Positions 54,958 through 64,000 of a stretch of 64,000 bases of DNA are shown piece after piece. The notes beneath the pieces were generated by a model. That model was not told the DNA's origin and searched no databases. It saw only the letters and a list, made by a program, of their open reading frames with translations. Every line of letters starts with the position of its first letter. Within the stretch, counting starts at the first letter, position 1. The stretch comes from an uncultured Alphaproteobacteria bacterium (lineage in GTDB: Bacteria > Pseudomonadota > Alphaproteobacteria > HIMB59 > GCA-002718135), in assembly GCA_902628835.1 (NCBI GenBank), contig CACOPD010000002.1, positions 142,218 to 206,217 of the forward strand, read 5' to 3'. Position numbers and translations under genes: made by a program.

Positions 54958-55032
54958 TGGTGCTGATACCGAGAATCGAACTTGGGTCTGACCGTTACCA
55001 ACGGCCTGTAATAACCATTATACTATATCAGC
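54958..55032 (-). tRNA. tRNA-Thr (anticodon GGT)
   Basis: On the minus strand, acceptor GCTGATA pairs with TATCAGC, the anticodon stem is GGCCG/CGGTC with loop TTGGTAA, and the T arm has TTCGATT. The anticodon GGT lies at 54999-54997. CCA is encoded at 54960-54958 after discriminator A. The D stem has three pairs and the T stem one A-C mismatch, otherwise the cloverleaf is complete. Its first ten bases include the stop codon of the MFS gene upstream. Confidence 0.9.
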
Positions 55033-56177
55033 TTCTTATTATTTTTATTCATTAAGAATAATAATAATAGACCATTGATTGCCCATATTAAAGAAAGAAC
55101 ATACATATTAAATGTTAAGCCAAAATATTCTGCCATATACCCGACTATTACTGGTCCAAAAATAAAACCTGCAAATCCTAATGTTGCCAAATTTGATACA
55201 GTTAAATTGATTGGTTCATTAGAACTTTTGATTGCTTGTCTATAAACTACAGCAATAAAATTTGCTGTTCCAAAACCAAATAATATCATTCCGGGAATTA
55301 TAAAATTAAGATTCATAGTAACAATTGATAATCCTAATATTATGCAAGAAAATAAACTAAAGTAACCTCCAACTATCTCTTCACTTAAAAAATTAATTAA
55401 TTTACTTGCGAGTAATCTCGCAAATATTTCTCCCAGATTAAAAAATAAAATAATCATACCTCCTAAATATAATGGAGCTTCTAGATCCTTTGTGAGCCAA
55501 ACAGGAGACCAATCTATAATTATGCCTAAAGTTGCAAAATTCATCATTAATAAAAAACCATAAATAAAAACATTGCTAGAAGGCATTTTAAACTTTATAT
55601 TTTTTTGAATTGGTTCAATTTCTTTTTTCATTCCAAATAATAAAATGACTAAAATATAAATAAAGAAAACAGTACCAACTAAAATAAAAGTAATTCTTGG
55701 ATCTGAAATATATTGAATAAAAAATGCTGCGCATAAAGCTCCAAAAAGTGATCCTGCACTAAAACAAGCTTGAAATAAAGGCGTGACTATTTTTGATGTT
55801 TTTTCTTCAATAACAGAAATTTGTGTTTGCATTGTTGGGAATAAGAGACCTATAGAAATCCCAAAGGGAATCCACGAAATTAAAAAAGTATCATAATTAG
55901 GAACACTTACCAAAAGTAGAGGACAGAAAGAAAAAATAATAATGCCTAATATAATGGTTCTAGTTGTTCCAATTCTAGGAACTACAACCCTTCCCGACAT
56001 TTGATTAGAAAAGAAATTAAAAATTCCAAATATAAAAATACCAAAACCTAATTGAGATTCAGTAATGTTTAATCTTTCAATGTTCCAAGGAATATGAACA
56101 AAATATATTCCTATCATAAACATTAGCAAAAAAGCTACACCAAAACATGCATTTCGTTCTTTATTAAAACTATTCAT
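55023..56177 (-). CDS. MFS transporter, YbjJ-like
   Basis: 384 aa with about 12 membrane helices. The family marks are HIPWNIERLNITESQLG (~residues 28-44), FFSNQMSGRVVVPRIGT (~54-70) and IIDWSPVWLTKDL (~214-226). It probably moves a sugar or small metabolite. A related gene lies at the right edge of the window. Unusually, its stop codon TAG (55025-55023) lies inside the tRNA-Thr gene, at tRNA positions 8-10. Confidence 0.88.
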   Translation of the reverse strand: MNSFNKERNACFGVAFLLMFMIGIYFVHIPWNIERLNITESQLGFGIFIFGIFNFFSNQMSGRVVVPRIGTTRTIILGIIIFSFCPLLLVSVPNYDTFLISWIPFGISIGLLFPTMQTQISVIEEKTSKIVTPLFQACFSAGSLFGALCAAFFIQYISDPRITFILVGTVFFIYILVILLFGMKKEIEPIQKNIKFKMPSSNVFIYGFLLMMNFATLGIIIDWSPVWLTKDLEAPLYLGGMIILFFNLGEIFARLLASKLINFLSEEIVGGYFSLFSCIILGLSIVTMNLNFIIPGMILFGFGTANFIAVVYRQAIKSSNEPINLTVSNLATLGFAGFIFGPVIVGYMAEYFGLTFNMYVLSLIWAINGLLLLFLMNKNNKKLI

Positions 56178-58876: not shown

Positions 58877-59665
58877 TTAATAAGCACTAGTATTATCGGA
58901 TTTAGTATCTACATCTTTCAATTCTTTTAATAAACTTTCAGCATGTGATGTCATCATTCTAAAATCAGAAAGTAAGGTCGTAAATTGAAAACCGTATTCC
59001 ATCATTTCTTTCATATACTTAACTGATCCATTATGAATACCAGCAATCTTTCCTTTTTCTTTTGCTTTTTTTGCAATCATTTTAATGTTTGAAAAAACCG
59101 GATCTTCACGAACATCAAATTTAGGCGGTAAACCATAAGAGGAACTCATATCTGCGGGCCCAATATAAATACCTGTTAAGTTTGGAACTGAAAGAATGGC
59201 ATCTAAATTTTCGACTGCCTCTTTTGTTTCAACCATTGCTAAACTCACTATATTTTTGTTCGCATGCTGGTGATAATCTGAACCATACGCAACCTGAGCT
59301 CTCATTGGACCAAAACTTCTTTGACCTATAGGAGGGTAATAACAATATGAAACAAACTTTTCACAGTCCTCTTTTGTATTAATCATTGGTGCAATAATAC
59401 CCTGAACTCCAAGGTCTAACATCTTCATAATAATACCAGGCTCATTCCAAGGAACTCTTGTCATTGGCACAGTATCACTATTTGACAATCCTTGTACCAT
59501 AGCAATAGCAGTTGAATAGTCATTTTGACCATGTTGCATATCAATTGTAACAGAATCCCATCCCATTTTTCCAAATGCTTCTGCTGTAAAAGAATTAGGT
59601 ATAGACAACCAAGCATTTACTGAGGCTTCACCTTTCTTCCAGATATCAAACAACTTATTTTTCAT
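58877..59665 (-). CDS. HpcH/HpaI-family 2-keto-3-deoxy acid aldolase
   Basis: 262 aa. The catalytic His is in DMQHGQND (~residues 43-50), Arg in GQRSFGPMRA (~112), the metal Glu in MVETKEAVENLD (~148-159) and the metal Asp in IGPADMSSSYG (~168-178). Class II aldolases of this family split 2-keto-3-deoxy acids (e.g. KDR, HKHD) to pyruvate plus an aldehyde. It is divergent from the following sugar module with 78 bp between starts, which probably holds both promoters. It could complete an oxidative sugar pathway started by the enolase-type or UxaA-type dehydratases elsewhere. Confidence 0.9.
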   Translation of the reverse strand: MKNKLFDIWKKGEASVNAWLSIPNSFTAEAFGKMGWDSVTIDMQHGQNDYSTAIAMVQGLSNSDTVPMTRVPWNEPGIIMKMLDLGVQGIIAPMINTKEDCEKFVSYCYYPPIGQRSFGPMRAQVAYGSDYHQHANKNIVSLAMVETKEAVENLDAILSVPNLTGIYIGPADMSSSYGLPPKFDVREDPVFSNIKMIAKKAKEKGKIAGIHNGSVKYMKEMMEYGFQFTTLLSDFRMMTSHAESLLKELKDVDTKSDNTSAY

Positions 59666-59743
59666 TTTTTTATATTTATCTGTATTATTATATTTGTATA
59701 AAAATACTATTAAAATAAAATTAAATTACTTCTTAGTATAATA

Positions 59744-61906
59744 ATGACTTACGAATTAGATAAAAATTTTGAAGAAAAAGTCTACGCAGGTGTTTTAGGT
59801 AAAATAATAGGTGTTTTTCTTGGAAGGCCATTTGAAGGTTGGAATTATGATAGAATAATTAAAGAATTGGGTCCTATAAATTATTACGTAAATGATAAAT
59901 TAGACTGCCCATTACCTGTTTCAGATGATGACATTACTGGTACATTTACTTTTTTACGGGCATTTAGAGAATGTAACTATAATAAAAATATTACTGCTAA
60001 AGATATTGGTAAAACATGGTTAAATAATATTATTGAAGATAAGACTATACTGTGGTGGGGTGGAAAAGGGCATTCAACAGAGGATACTGCATTTCAAAAT
60101 CTAAAACAGGGAATAGAAGCGCCTGATAGTGGTTCTATAAAAACAAACGGAAAAGTAATAGCAGAACAAATTGGAGCGCAAATTTTTATTGATGGTTGGG
60201 CTATGGTAGCACCTGGAGATCCAGACAAAGCAACATATTATGCCAAACTTGCTGCAAGTGTTAGTCATGATGGTGAGGCAATTTACGGCGCACAAGTTAT
60301 AGCTGCTTTAGAGTCAATGGCTTTTGTAGAACATGATTTAACAAAGTTAGTTGATCAAGCAAAGAAATTCATCCCAAATAATTCAGTAATATACAAATTA
60401 ATTTCTGACATACAAGAATGGCGATCTGAAAATTTAGACTGGGAACAAGCAAGAGAAAAAATTGTTGAGAAATATGGATATGATAAATTTTTAGGTAACT
60501 GTCATATTGTGCCTAATCATGCATTAATAATTATGGCCTTATTATTTGGCGATGATGATTTTAAAAAAACAATGATGATTGTAAATACATCTGGCTGGGA
60601 TACAGATTGCAATTCAGGTAATGTAGGCTGTATTTTGGGAATAAAGAATGGGATTGAAGGACTCAAATCTGGTCCAGACTATCTATCACCTATAAACGAT
60701 ATTTTATATTGCCCCACAGCTTTAGGAGGAGAAACTCTTACTGATGCCTTAACTGAAGCCTATAAGATAATTAATACAACAAGAAAAATTAATGGTTTAA
60801 AAAAAAATTTACCTAAAAATGGTGCTAGATTTCATTTTAATATTAAAGAGTCAACACAAGGCTGGAAGGTTAGAAAAGGAAAAAATTATAGTAAAACAAA
60901 AATAAGTAATATCGAATATAAATCTTCACTAGGTGAAAGAGGTCTAAAAATTTCCTATTTTAATTCTTCAAAGGATTGTACTTCAGAGGTTTATGTAGAA
61001 ACTTTTTTTCCAGAAGTTATTTTAGATTTACAAGGAAAAAAGAGAGATGACTTTTTTAGTTATGATTATATTTCATGTCCTATTATTTTTCCCGGTCAGA
61101 GAGTAACATTAGAATCACAAAATATATCTTCACATGAGATTTCAATTTCATTTTTTTTAAAACACTGGGGTAAAGACGATAAACTAATTAAAATTTCTTC
61201 AAACTTTTTTAAGTTCAGAGGAAATGAAAAAAAACAAATATCATGGGATATTCCTGAAACCGGATCAAATCCTGTTGGTCAAATTGGTGTAAATATTACT
61301 TCAAATAAAAATAGAGAAGGTGAAGTAATTTTAAATTCTGTAAATTTCGAGGGAGAGCCAAAACAAATATTTAAAAGGCCAGATCATTTACAGAATTATA
61401 AAAAAGGTAAAAAAATAAAAGAGGGTTACTATGGTGAAATTTGGAGAAATGCCTGGGTTCAATATTTAGATAAATGGGAGAGGAGTGGTAAGAATTTTAG
61501 GATTTGCCATAATAATGGTAGAGGCATTCTATATACTGGAACAGATTTATGGAAAAATTATTCAATATCATCAAATATTATGTTGCAGTCTAGTAACTCA
61601 GGAGGATTAGTTTCAAGAGTACAGGGTGTAAAAAAATATTATATATATGAAATTTGTAAAGATAATAAATTGCGAATTGGTAAAATGAATAATGAATATA
61701 AAATTTTAAAAGAAATAGAATTTCAAGTAGAATTTTTCAAAGAATATAATTTAAAAATGATGCTAGTAAATAATAAAATTATTGGATACATAGATAATAA
61801 AGTTATTATAGATGTCGACGATTTTGAATTTCCTTTTACAAAAGGTGGCGCAGGCTTGGGAGTTAACAACGGCACTTTGGTAACAGAACAAATAATTTTA
61901 AATTAA
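59744..61906 (+). CDS. ADP-ribosylglycohydrolase-fold protein with C-terminal beta-sandwich domains
   Basis: 720 aa. Residues ~1-345 form a DraG/ARH-like domain: VLGKIIGVFLGRPFEG near 17, the metal motif SDDDITGTF near 63, SVSHDGEAIYGAQ near 178, and GWDTDCNSGNVGCILG near 285 (paired Asp ligands). Residues ~365-545 look like a beta-sandwich, and ~555-718 resemble a LamG/DUF1080-type lectin fold (GSGKNFR, NSGGLVSRV, GGAGLGVNNGT). No signal peptide. The classical reaction is ADP-ribose removal, but the carbohydrate-like domains and sugar-gene neighbours suggest hydrolysis of a glycoside or riboside. Function is inferred only. Confidence 0.8.
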   Translation: MTYELDKNFEEKVYAGVLGKIIGVFLGRPFEGWNYDRIIKELGPINYYVNDKLDCPLPVSDDDITGTFTFLRAFRECNYNKNITAKDIGKTWLNNIIEDKTILWWGGKGHSTEDTAFQNLKQGIEAPDSGSIKTNGKVIAEQIGAQIFIDGWAMVAPGDPDKATYYAKLAASVSHDGEAIYGAQVIAALESMAFVEHDLTKLVDQAKKFIPNNSVIYKLISDIQEWRSENLDWEQAREKIVEKYGYDKFLGNCHIVPNHALIIMALLFGDDDFKKTMMIVNTSGWDTDCNSGNVGCILGIKNGIEGLKSGPDYLSPINDILYCPTALGGETLTDALTEAYKIINTTRKINGLKKNLPKNGARFHFNIKESTQGWKVRKGKNYSKTKISNIEYKSSLGERGLKISYFNSSKDCTSEVYVETFFPEVILDLQGKKRDDFFSYDYISCPIIFPGQRVTLESQNISSHEISISFFLKHWGKDDKLIKISSNFFKFRGNEKKQISWDIPETGSNPVGQIGVNITSNKNREGEVILNSVNFEGEPKQIFKRPDHLQNYKKGKKIKEGYYGEIWRNAWVQYLDKWERSGKNFRICHNNGRGILYTGTDLWKNYSISSNIMLQSSNSGGLVSRVQGVKKYYIYEICKDNKLRIGKMNNEYKILKEIEFQVEFFKEYNLKMMLVNNKIIGYIDNKVIIDVDDFEFPFTKGGAGLGVNNGTLVTEQIILN

Positions 61907-61909
61907 ATT

Positions 61910-62893
61910 ATGAAGTATAGAAAATTTGGCTCTTTAGATTGGAATGTATCTGAAATAGGTTTAGGCTGTTGGCAGATTGGCGCTGATTGGGGTAATGTAA
62001 GCGAAGAGAAGGCAAATGAAGTATTACAATCATCATTTGAAAATGGAGTAAATTTTTTTGATACAGCTGATGTTTATGGCGATGGAAGAAGTGAAAAATT
62101 TGTTGGAAATTTTATAAATTCTATTTCTGAGAGAATTTATGTAGCAACTAAAGCTGGTAGACGTATTAATCCACACGTTGCAAATGGTTATTATGATAGA
62201 GATTTAATGGAGTCTTTTGTAGACCGATCATTATCAAATCTAAATATTGAAACTATCGATCTTTTACAAATGCATTGTCCGCCAACAGAGGTTTATTCAT
62301 CTGATCAGACATTCGAAATGTTAAATTATTTAGTAAGTAAAGGCAAAATACAAAATTATGGTTTTAGCGTTGAAACAGTTGATCAAGCTTTAGAATGCAT
62401 TAAAAACCCTAATACAAAATCAATTCAAGTTATCTTTAATATTTTTAGACAAAAACCTGCAGAAGAATTATTTAAAATAGCAAATGAAAAAAAAGTAGCA
62501 ATCATAGTTAGAGTCCCTCTTGCTAGCGGTTTGTTATCTGGAAAATTTGATAAAAATTCTTCCTTTGCCTCTGATGATCATCGAAATTATAATATTAACG
62601 GTGATGCATTTGATGTTGGTGAAACATTCTCCGGGGTCAATTATTCAAAAGCTCTGGAAGCAGTCGAAGAACTTAAAAATCTTATTCCAGATGAAGTAAC
62701 TCTTTCTCAATTATCTCTTAAATGGATTTTAATGCATGAAGCTGTAAGTGTTATAATTCCAGGTGCAAAAAATAAAGACCAGGTAAATCTAAATGTTGCT
62801 TCTAGTGAAGTTAATGAGATCTCCTCTTTAATGAATGAGATAAATCATATCTATACAAAATATTTCTATGATGATGTACATCATCGTTGGTAG
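61910..62893 (+). CDS. Aldo/keto reductase
   Basis: 327 aa TIM barrel. SEIGLGCWQIGADWG (~residues 15-29), the Asp/Tyr pair in FFDTADVYGDGRSE (~49-62), Lys in ATKAGRR (~80) and His in LLQMHCP (~117-123) are the AKR catalytic elements; VIIPGAKNKDQV (~280) is the NADP loop. It follows the glycohydrolase-fold gene by 3 bp, so it likely acts on the sugar released. The group resembles YajO/LolS-type reductases and sugar dehydrogenases. Confidence 0.88.
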   Translation: MKYRKFGSLDWNVSEIGLGCWQIGADWGNVSEEKANEVLQSSFENGVNFFDTADVYGDGRSEKFVGNFINSISERIYVATKAGRRINPHVANGYYDRDLMESFVDRSLSNLNIETIDLLQMHCPPTEVYSSDQTFEMLNYLVSKGKIQNYGFSVETVDQALECIKNPNTKSIQVIFNIFRQKPAEELFKIANEKKVAIIVRVPLASGLLSGKFDKNSSFASDDHRNYNINGDAFDVGETFSGVNYSKALEAVEELKNLIPDEVTLSQLSLKWILMHEAVSVIIPGAKNKDQVNLNVASSEVNEISSLMNEINHIYTKYFYDDVHHRW

Positions 62894-62901
62894 TAAATTT
62901 T

Positions 62902-64000
62902 GTGTTAGAAGAAACTAAGATATTTAGAAGAGCAACTCTTGCATCAATAATAACATCAACTTATCCTATGATTGTTGTTGGATGTTACTTTGGCATTACA
63001 CCATGGAATATGAAGAGGTTAACAATTGATGAAACTGATTTAAGTTTTTCAATATTAATTTTTGGAATTTTTTTTGTATTATCAAATCAAATAGCTGGAA
63101 GAATATTAGTCCCAAAATATGGAACAAGACTAGTAATGTCTTTGGCTTTTCCACTAATTACCTTTTCTTCATTGTTATCGATAATATCTTCATCATATTT
63201 ATATTTTTTATTAACTTTCATTCCAGCTGGGATCGGATGGGGCGCTTCTGGACCAATTGGAGGAATACATTCTCAACTAATTGAAAAACATTTTAAGAAA
63301 ATTATTACTCCTTACTACGCTATGGGTTTCAATATTGGCATTCTTGCTGGTGGAAGTTTAGCTGGTATAATTATGCGGTATAACTTTGAGCCTTATATTT
63401 TCTTTGTTGTTTTGTCTTTTTCTTCAATTTTAGTTGCATTATTAGTTCTTCATCTAGGATTACCTAGTAATTTAGATTTTAAAGGCAAAGGTGAAAAATT
63501 TAAAATTCCCGAGTCAAATGTTCTTGTATTTGGTTTTTTATTATTTTTTGTTTTTGGTTCTGGTGGTATAGTTATGGATTGGTCGACATTATGGCTATCA
63601 AAAGATTTAAACACCCCTCTTTATCTCGCAAGTATGGGATTAATATTTTTTAGTATTGGAGCTATTTTAGCTAATTTATTCTCTAACACTTTAATTAACT
63701 TATTTACTGAAAAAGTTGTAGGATGTCATTTTGTGATGATTGGAGCGTCAATAATGTTTTTGTCTTTATTAACAAACAATTTCTATATTATACTAGTAGT
63801 TTTATCTATTTATGGATTTGCTATAGCAAACTTAGTTCCCATAGTTATTCGACAAGCTGTTAAGCAATCCAACGAGAGTATTCCTATGACTGTAACAAAT
63901 CTTATAACTATTGGATTATCTTCTACAATGATTATGCCAGCAGCAGTTGGTTTTCTTGCGGAAACATTTTCACTTACTTTAAATATGTATTTACTATGTA
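62902..64000 (+). CDS. MFS transporter, YbjJ-like, cut by window edge (GTG start)
   Basis: A frame from GTG 62902 stays open to the window end (366 codons), so the last part is missing. It reads through ITPWNMKRLTIDETDLS (~residues 32-48), LSNQIAGRILVPKYGT (~59-74) and MDWSTLWLSKDLNTPLYL (~216-233). It matches the carrier at 55023-56177 along its whole length, with about 12 helices expected. It starts 8 bp after the aldo/keto reductase and probably imports the substrate of the module. Confidence 0.85.
   Translation, partial: MLEETKIFRRATLASIITSTYPMIVVGCYFGITPWNMKRLTIDETDLSFSILIFGIFFVLSNQIAGRILVPKYGTRLVMSLAFPLITFSSLLSIISSSYLYFLLTFIPAGIGWGASGPIGGIHSQLIEKHFKKIITPYYAMGFNIGILAGGSLAGIIMRYNFEPYIFFVVLSFSSILVALLVLHLGLPSNLDFKGKGEKFKIPESNVLVFGFLLFFVFGSGGIVMDWSTLWLSKDLNTPLYLASMGLIFFSIGAILANLFSNTLINLFTEKVVGCHFVMIGASIMFLSLLTNNFYIILVVLSIYGFAIANLVPIVIRQAVKQSNESIPMTVTNLITIGLSSTMIMPAAVGFLAETFSLTLNMYLLC

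What the first reader, a model, noticed from the sequence alone, without database searches (positions are those of the whole stretch)
59744..61906. ADP-ribosylglycohydrolase fold fused to carbohydrate-type beta domains
The first half has all Asp metal motifs of DraG/ARH enzymes, but the second half adds two beta-sandwich regions, the last resembling LamG/DUF1080 (3-keto-disaccharide hydrolase-type) folds. It is cytoplasmic, sits in a sugar module and has an AKR 3 bp downstream. A repurposed ARH core that cleaves glycosidic or N-ribosidic bonds of an imported compound would be a new carbohydrate-active arrangement.
Basis: partly seen in the sequence, partly recalled or inferred. Interest (0 to 1): 0.62.

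Follow-up and report, generated by a model that had tools for sequence, protein, structure and literature searches.

The report
Sugar-operon enzyme with ARH catalytic core
A marine bacterium carries an intracellular three-part enzyme whose catalytic core belongs to the family that normally removes ADP-ribose from proteins, but which is joined to two sugar-binding-type domains and, in its relatives, sits behind a sugar importer, so it is probably an uncharacterised kind of enzyme that cuts small imported glycosides.

Summary
The 720-aa protein is an intact ADP-ribosylglycohydrolase (PF03747, E 2.5e-50). A confident model (pLDDT 92, pTM 0.92) shows three domains: an ARH core (Z 32.6 to MJ1187), a CBM-type jelly roll (Z 17) and a CBM66-like lectin domain (Z 22). 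DUF1080 is only a weak match. The architecture recurs in Alphaproteobacteria, Chloroflexota, Deinococcus and Enterobacter; its core stays about 62% identical between phyla, with metal-motif residues invariant. It falls in a 'DTDCN' branch apart from the YegU-type branch.

Context points to glycoside catabolism. In 29 of 29 alphaproteobacterial loci of one search it directly follows an ABC sugar importer. Elsewhere it sits with LacI, PfkB or a YcjN-like binding protein. Some close relatives have four tandem copies. The window organism lacks the importer genes at this locus but keeps ARH-AKR-MFS.

Best explanation: a cytoplasmic, binuclear-metal, ARH-fold glycosidase for small imported glycosides; activity and substrate are untested. 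Caveats: in an even Chloroflexota sample importer linkage was only 6/20 against 2/20 for other ARHs, and residues matching ARH pyrophosphate contacts are kept, so a nucleotide-like substrate is not excluded. New variant of a known kind.

The parts
59744..61906 (+). ARH-CBM-CBM66-like protein, 720 aa plus stop
59744..60808 (+). residues 1-355, ADP-ribosylglycohydrolase (ARH) catalytic core
   Evidence: PF03747 E 2.5e-50; Z 32.6 to MJ1187, about 32 to ARH3
59834..59836 (+). E31, aligned with the conserved catalytic/metal-contacting Glu of ARHs
   Evidence: invariant in 53 homologues; aligned with YegU and other ARHs; role in ARH3 from PMC6309922
59924..59932 (+). D61-D62-D63, first metal motif
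   Evidence: invariant; aligned with TDDT/S of YegU-type ARHs
60266..60268 (+). H175, aligned with the conserved ARH His
   Evidence: invariant; alignment
60599..60613 (+). D286-T287-D288-C289-N290, second metal motif with Cys in place of Thr/Ser
   Evidence: invariant; alignment
60815..61363 (+). residues 358-540, CBM-type beta jelly roll
61364..61903 (+). residues 541-720, CBM66 / GH59-lectin-like domain
   Evidence: Z 22.1 to 4b1m; GH59_C profile in 25 of 53 homologues
61910..62893 (+). aldo-keto reductase, closest solved relative IolS
   Evidence: PF00248 E 1.3e-60
62887..64000 (+). MFS transporter, running off the window (386 aa in L121)
59723..59743 (.). approximate junction where relatives carry SBP and two permease genes that are missing here
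58877..59665 (-). HpcH/HpaI-type aldolase, divergent neighbour, conserved in place in same-genus relatives

Best explanation
It is a cytoplasmic, metal-dependent glycoside-cleaving enzyme. In relatives a CUT1-type ABC importer (binding protein, two permeases, in some a MalK-like ATPase gene) brings in a small glycoside. The ARH core would hold the glycone through two metal ions bound by the D61/D62/D63 and D286/D288 motifs and, with E31, hydrolyse the bond at the anomeric carbon, as ARH1 and ARH3 do with the distal ribose of ADP-ribose. The two beta domains would shape the substrate site or bind the rest of the glycoside. The freed sugar would then be phosphorylated (PfkB in some operons) or reduced (AKR in this genus). 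In the window organism the importer genes at this locus are missing, so uptake would depend on the MFS protein or another transporter. Shown: domains, fold, invariant residues, operon context in relatives, tandem copies, absence of the importer genes here. Inferred: hydrolytic activity, that the substrate is a glycoside, and the roles of the beta domains, AKR and MFS. The substrate is unknown.
For: Invariant metal-motif Asp residues and E31 in 53 homologues. ARH fold plus two carbohydrate-binding-type folds. SBP-permease-permease directly before the ARH in 29 of 29 alphaproteobacterial loci. LacI-SBP-perm-perm-ARH-MalK in Rhizobium jaguaris. LacI and PfkB in Chloroflexota operons. LacI-ARH-SBP in Enterobacter, the SBP 70% identical to YcjN, whose E. 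coli gene follows a glucosylglycerate phosphorylase gene. GH2 and a trehalase-type gene beside the Deinococcus copy. SBPs nearest to CUT1 sugar or oligosaccharide binders. Two to four tandem copies behind the importer in relatives. Core 62% identical between phyla while the beta domains vary.
Against: No activity data. In an even Chloroflexota sample, importer genes lie near only 6 of 20 members against 2 of 20 other PF03747 genes. The Gly and His that contact pyrophosphate in ARH1/ARH3 have aligned counterparts here, so a phosphorylated or nucleotide-like substrate is possible. Many of the 29 alphaproteobacterial loci come from one genus. The window genome itself lacks the importer at this locus.
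Confidence: 0.62

Rival explanations
1. It is a ribosidase or nucleosidase: the ARH core cleaves N- or O-ribosides (nucleosides, nicotinamide riboside and the like) and the ribose is salvaged by a PfkB ribokinase-like enzyme.
For: ARHs hold a ribose by its 2'' and 3'' hydroxyls on two Mg ions (PMC6309922). PfkB genes near some copies score best against ribokinase, below cut-off. LacI proteins score best against RbsR, below cut-off. E. coli yegTUV pairs a putative nucleoside-type transporter, an ARH and a sugar kinase.
Against: The importers are CUT1 type with binding proteins nearest to sugar or oligosaccharide binders, not nucleoside binders. This family lies in a different branch from YegU. 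PfkB is absent from the operon in the window's genus.
Confidence: 0.15
2. It is a genuine ADP-ribosyl hydrolase acting on ADP-ribosylated macromolecules or small ADP-ribosyl derivatives, with the beta domains used for binding the target.
For: ARH fold at Z 32, metal motifs, catalytic Glu, and aligned Gly and His of the pyrophosphate site are kept.
Against: No ADP-ribosyltransferase gene was seen among the neighbours scanned. The NG(A/S)xMR and DTDT/S signatures of the YegU-type branch are replaced. Operon with a sugar importer. A DraT search found nothing but its controls did not ring, so it does not count.
Confidence: 0.12
3. It is a non-catalytic or regulatory sugar sensor that kept the ARH fold.
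For: Two carbohydrate-binding-type domains.
Against: The core is the most conserved part, with 98 invariant positions including every metal-motif Asp and E31. Operons already hold LacI regulators.
Confidence: 0.05

Closest known systems
ARH/DraG family (PF03747: ARH1, ARH3, DraG, MJ1187)
   Same: Fold (Z about 28-33), metal motifs, catalytic Glu, conserved Gly and His by alignment
   Different: Two extra C-terminal carbohydrate-binding-type domains; DDD...DTDCN motifs instead of TDDT/S...DTDT/S; sugar-import operon context
E. coli YegU in yegTUV
   Same: ARH gene between a transporter gene and a sugar kinase gene, proposed link to sugar metabolism
   Different: Different branch of PF03747, no beta domains, MFS instead of ABC importer; function also unproven
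E. coli ycj cluster (YcjM glucosylglycerate phosphorylase, YcjN, YcjO, YcjP)
   Same: CUT1 importer next to a glycoside-cleaving enzyme gene; the Enterobacter ARH lies before a 70% YcjN-like SBP, in the place of ycjM
   Different: The cleaving enzyme is unrelated; no ARH in the E. coli cluster
CBM66 of Bacillus subtilis levanase and GH59 galactocerebrosidase lectin domain
   Same: Fold of residues 541-720 (Z 22.1 and 20.4)
   Different: About 18% identity or less; ligand binding untested; here inside a cytoplasmic enzyme
DUF1080 / 3-keto-disaccharide hydrolase (PF06439)
   Same: Weak profile hits in 4 of 53 homologues
   Different: No hit in the window protein; GH59_C and CBM66 match better

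Membership tests
PF03747 ADP-ribosylglycohydrolase superfamily | Profile match above the curated cut-off and ARH fold | tested here: met
   172 bits against cut-off 26.2; Z 32.6 to MJ1187
PF03747 ADP-ribosylglycohydrolase superfamily | Metal-binding Asp motifs and conserved Glu | tested here: met
   E31, D61-D63, D286, D288 invariant
Canonical ADP-ribosyl hydrolase branch (YegU-type signatures) | TDDT/S, NG(A/S)xMR and DTDT/S motifs; grouping with YegU in a tree | tested here: not met
   DDD, IGAQIF and DTDCN instead; separate at 100/100, with long-branch warnings
Canonical ADP-ribosyl hydrolase branch (YegU-type signatures) | Hydrolysis of ADP-ribosyl bonds | not testable with these tools
   needs enzyme assay
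CBM66 | CBM66 fold | tested here: met
   Z 22.1, rmsd 1.8 A over 151 residues
CBM66 | Carbohydrate binding and conserved ligand residues | not tested
   the paper describing the levanase module is not held
DUF1080 / 3-keto-disaccharide hydrolase (PF06439) | Profile match above cut-off | tested here: not met
   no match in the window protein at E up to 1; only 4 of 53 homologues, best E 0.0018
A glycoside hydrolase family in CAZy | A characterised member with glycosidase activity | not tested
   CAZy is not among the tools; paper searches showed no characterised member

The most novel reading that the evidence does not exclude
A new glycoside hydrolase family: binuclear-metal glycosidases built on the ARH fold, with their own carbohydrate-binding-type domains, working inside the cell on glycosides imported by dedicated ABC systems, and expanded into tandem arrays in some marine Alphaproteobacteria.
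Probability: 0.45. Interest if true: 0.75.

Novelty: new variant of a known kind. Interest (0 to 1): 0.52.

Why it matters
Public records annotate these proteins simply as 'ADP-ribosylglycohydrolase family protein', which suggests a role in ADP-ribose signalling. The context suggests a catabolic glycosidase instead. If confirmed, it would add metal-dependent glycoside cleavage on the ARH fold to carbohydrate metabolism, and it would help show which dissolved glycosides small-genome marine Alphaproteobacteria take up.

Tried and rejected
DUF1080 as the C-terminal fold: weaker than CBM66 and the GH59 lectin domain. Importer linkage as a general rule in Chloroflexota: 6/20 against 2/20 in an even sample, a small difference. 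'Pyrophosphate site lost' as an argument against ADP-ribose: dropped, because the aligned Gly and His are kept. DraT partner: nothing in the genome, but the control search rang nowhere, so no conclusion. Phage collection: no match. E. coli genomes: no near match to the Enterobacter LacI-ARH-SBP stretch. The levanase CBM66 paper (PMC3529030) is not held, so its ligand residues were not compared.

Full report
Observation. The ORF at 59744-61906 (+) encodes 720 aa. PF03747 covers residues 16-308 at E 2.5e-50, and it is the only PF03747 gene found in this assembly, which is about 84% complete. Beyond residue 355 no Pfam family passes its cut-off; the best weak hits are GH59_C (E 0.047) and the levanase CBM66 chains (E 0.014). 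The AKR gene begins after 3 bp and overlaps an MFS gene by 7 bp.

Structure. A model built on 53 homologues has mean pLDDT 92.4 and pTM 0.92. VIA-align matches residues 6-348 to MJ1187 at Z 32.6 (293 residues, 2.6 A) and ARH3 at about Z 32; residues 541-720 to the levanase CBM66 at Z 22.1 (151 residues, 1.8 A) and to galactocerebrosidase at Z 20.4; residues 358-537 to a CBM structure (2c26) at Z 17.1. The middle domain folded alone (pLDDT 90.7) gives the same top match at Z 17.0, followed by CBM22, CBM4, CBM27, CBM28 and CBM11 structures at about Z 13-15.5. So both beta regions have carbohydrate-binding-type folds; a shared fold does not prove binding. The C-terminal parts of the 53 homologues match GH59_C in 25 cases and DUF1080 in 4.

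Active site. E31, D61-D62-D63, H175, D286, T287, D288, C289 and N290 are invariant in the 53 homologues. Alignment with E. coli YegU and other PF03747 proteins shows two groups. One has TDDT/S, NG(A/S)xMR and DTDT/S signatures (YegU and most short Chloroflexota ARHs). The other has DDD, IGAQI and DTDC(N) signatures and includes this family and many 440-635-aa proteins. A tree of 38 rows separates the two at 100/100 and makes this family one clade at 100/100, with the warning that some branches are long and that the root is drawn at the midpoint. In ARH1 and ARH3 two Mg ions hold the distal ribose, mutation of a single Mg ligand abolishes activity, a conserved Glu takes part, and a conserved Gly and His contact the pyrophosphate (PMC6309922). 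By alignment the Glu, Gly and His all have counterparts here (E31, G144, H175), so the sequence does not exclude a phosphorylated or nucleotide-like substrate.

Distribution. Homologues were found in 35 of 101 genomes of near relatives, all in the window's genus, in other Alphaproteobacteria, Chloroflexota and a few other lineages, on plasmid records of Rhizobium, Agrobacterium, Deinococcus and Enterobacter, and, at full length, in about 20 of 301 evenly drawn Chloroflexota genomes. The core averages 62% identity between the window protein and homologues outside the Alphaproteobacteria; the two beta domains average 26% and 28%. No phage record matches.

Context. In same-genus relatives the order is ABC-F, aldolase (divergent), SBP, permease, permease, ARH, AKR, MFS, nitrilase-type hydrolase, methyltransferase. 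All 29 alphaproteobacterial loci (L032-L060) have a permease gene directly before the ARH, with the SBP and other permease before it, though many are from one genus. Rhizobium jaguaris has LacI-SBP-permeases-ARH-MalK. Chloroflexota include LacI-SBP-perm-perm-ARH, some with a second short ARH or a PfkB kinase. Enterobacter has LacI-ARH-SBP, the last two overlapping by 4 bp, the SBP 70% identical to YcjN; in E. coli, ycjN follows the glucosylglycerate phosphorylase gene ycjM. Deinococcus has GH2, SBP, permease, RICIN, ARH and a trehalase-type gene. SBPs from the window's genus, Rhizobium and Anaerolinea are nearest to CUT1 sugar-binding proteins, including oligosaccharide binders. In the even Chloroflexota sample, however, only 6 of 20 members had importer genes nearby against 2 of 20 other PF03747 genes, so the linkage is strong in Alphaproteobacteria and partial elsewhere.

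Tandem copies. Several same-genus genomes carry two to four copies in a row behind the importer. Within one array of four the cores are 62-80% identical and the metal motifs are kept. This fits diversification over a set of related substrates (inference).

The window organism. Here the SBP and both permease genes are missing between the aldolase and the ARH. The sequence up to about 59722 matches the region upstream of the SBP in L032, and the sequence from 59743 matches the ARH start. No orthologous SBP was found elsewhere in the incomplete genome; the best match is 25% identical. If the loss is real, ARH-AKR-MFS may now use the promoter region that preceded the importer (inference). An assembly or amplification artefact is not excluded.

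Interpretation. I favour a cytoplasmic ARH-fold glycosidase for small imported glycosides (0.62) over a riboside hydrolase (0.15), a true ADP-ribosyl hydrolase (0.12) and a non-enzymatic sensor (0.05). The activity, the substrate and the role of the beta domains are inferred. The papers I could search showed no characterised member, but CAZy itself and most subscription journals were not searchable.

Comparison. The protein belongs to the PF03747 superfamily by profile, fold and metal motifs, but lacks the signatures of the YegU-type branch. E. coli yegTUV is the nearest analogous gene arrangement. I rate it a new variant of a known kind.

Noticed in passing
L119:8356-17111 (G021) and L120:3041-11791 (G028): Four head-to-tail copies of the same 720-734-aa ARH gene between the sugar importer and the AKR gene; metal motifs kept in all copies.
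   Followed up: partly
window 59723-59743: Apparent loss of about 3 kb (SBP and two permease genes) relative to same-genus relatives; could be real or an assembly or amplification artefact.
   Followed up: partly
L139:7963-12422: Enterobacter hormaechei plasmid record with LacI-ARH-SBP, the SBP 70% identical to E. coli YcjN, lying between chiP and glnS.
   Followed up: partly
L088:4777-5925, also L069, L084, L091, L105: A short ARH (about 380 aa, different PF03747 branch) next to the long ARH or its importer genes in Chloroflexota.
   Followed up: partly
L148, L151 and L147-L164: A second large 'DTDCN' group of 440-635-aa PF03747 proteins in Chloroflexota, two of them near importer genes; function unknown.
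   Followed up: no
window 55023-56177 and 62887-64000: Two MFS transporter genes about 7 kb apart, related to each other at roughly 40% identity through the L056 homologue.
   Followed up: no
window 54961-55032 (-): tRNA gene, the only Rfam match in the window at the gathering threshold.
   Followed up: no
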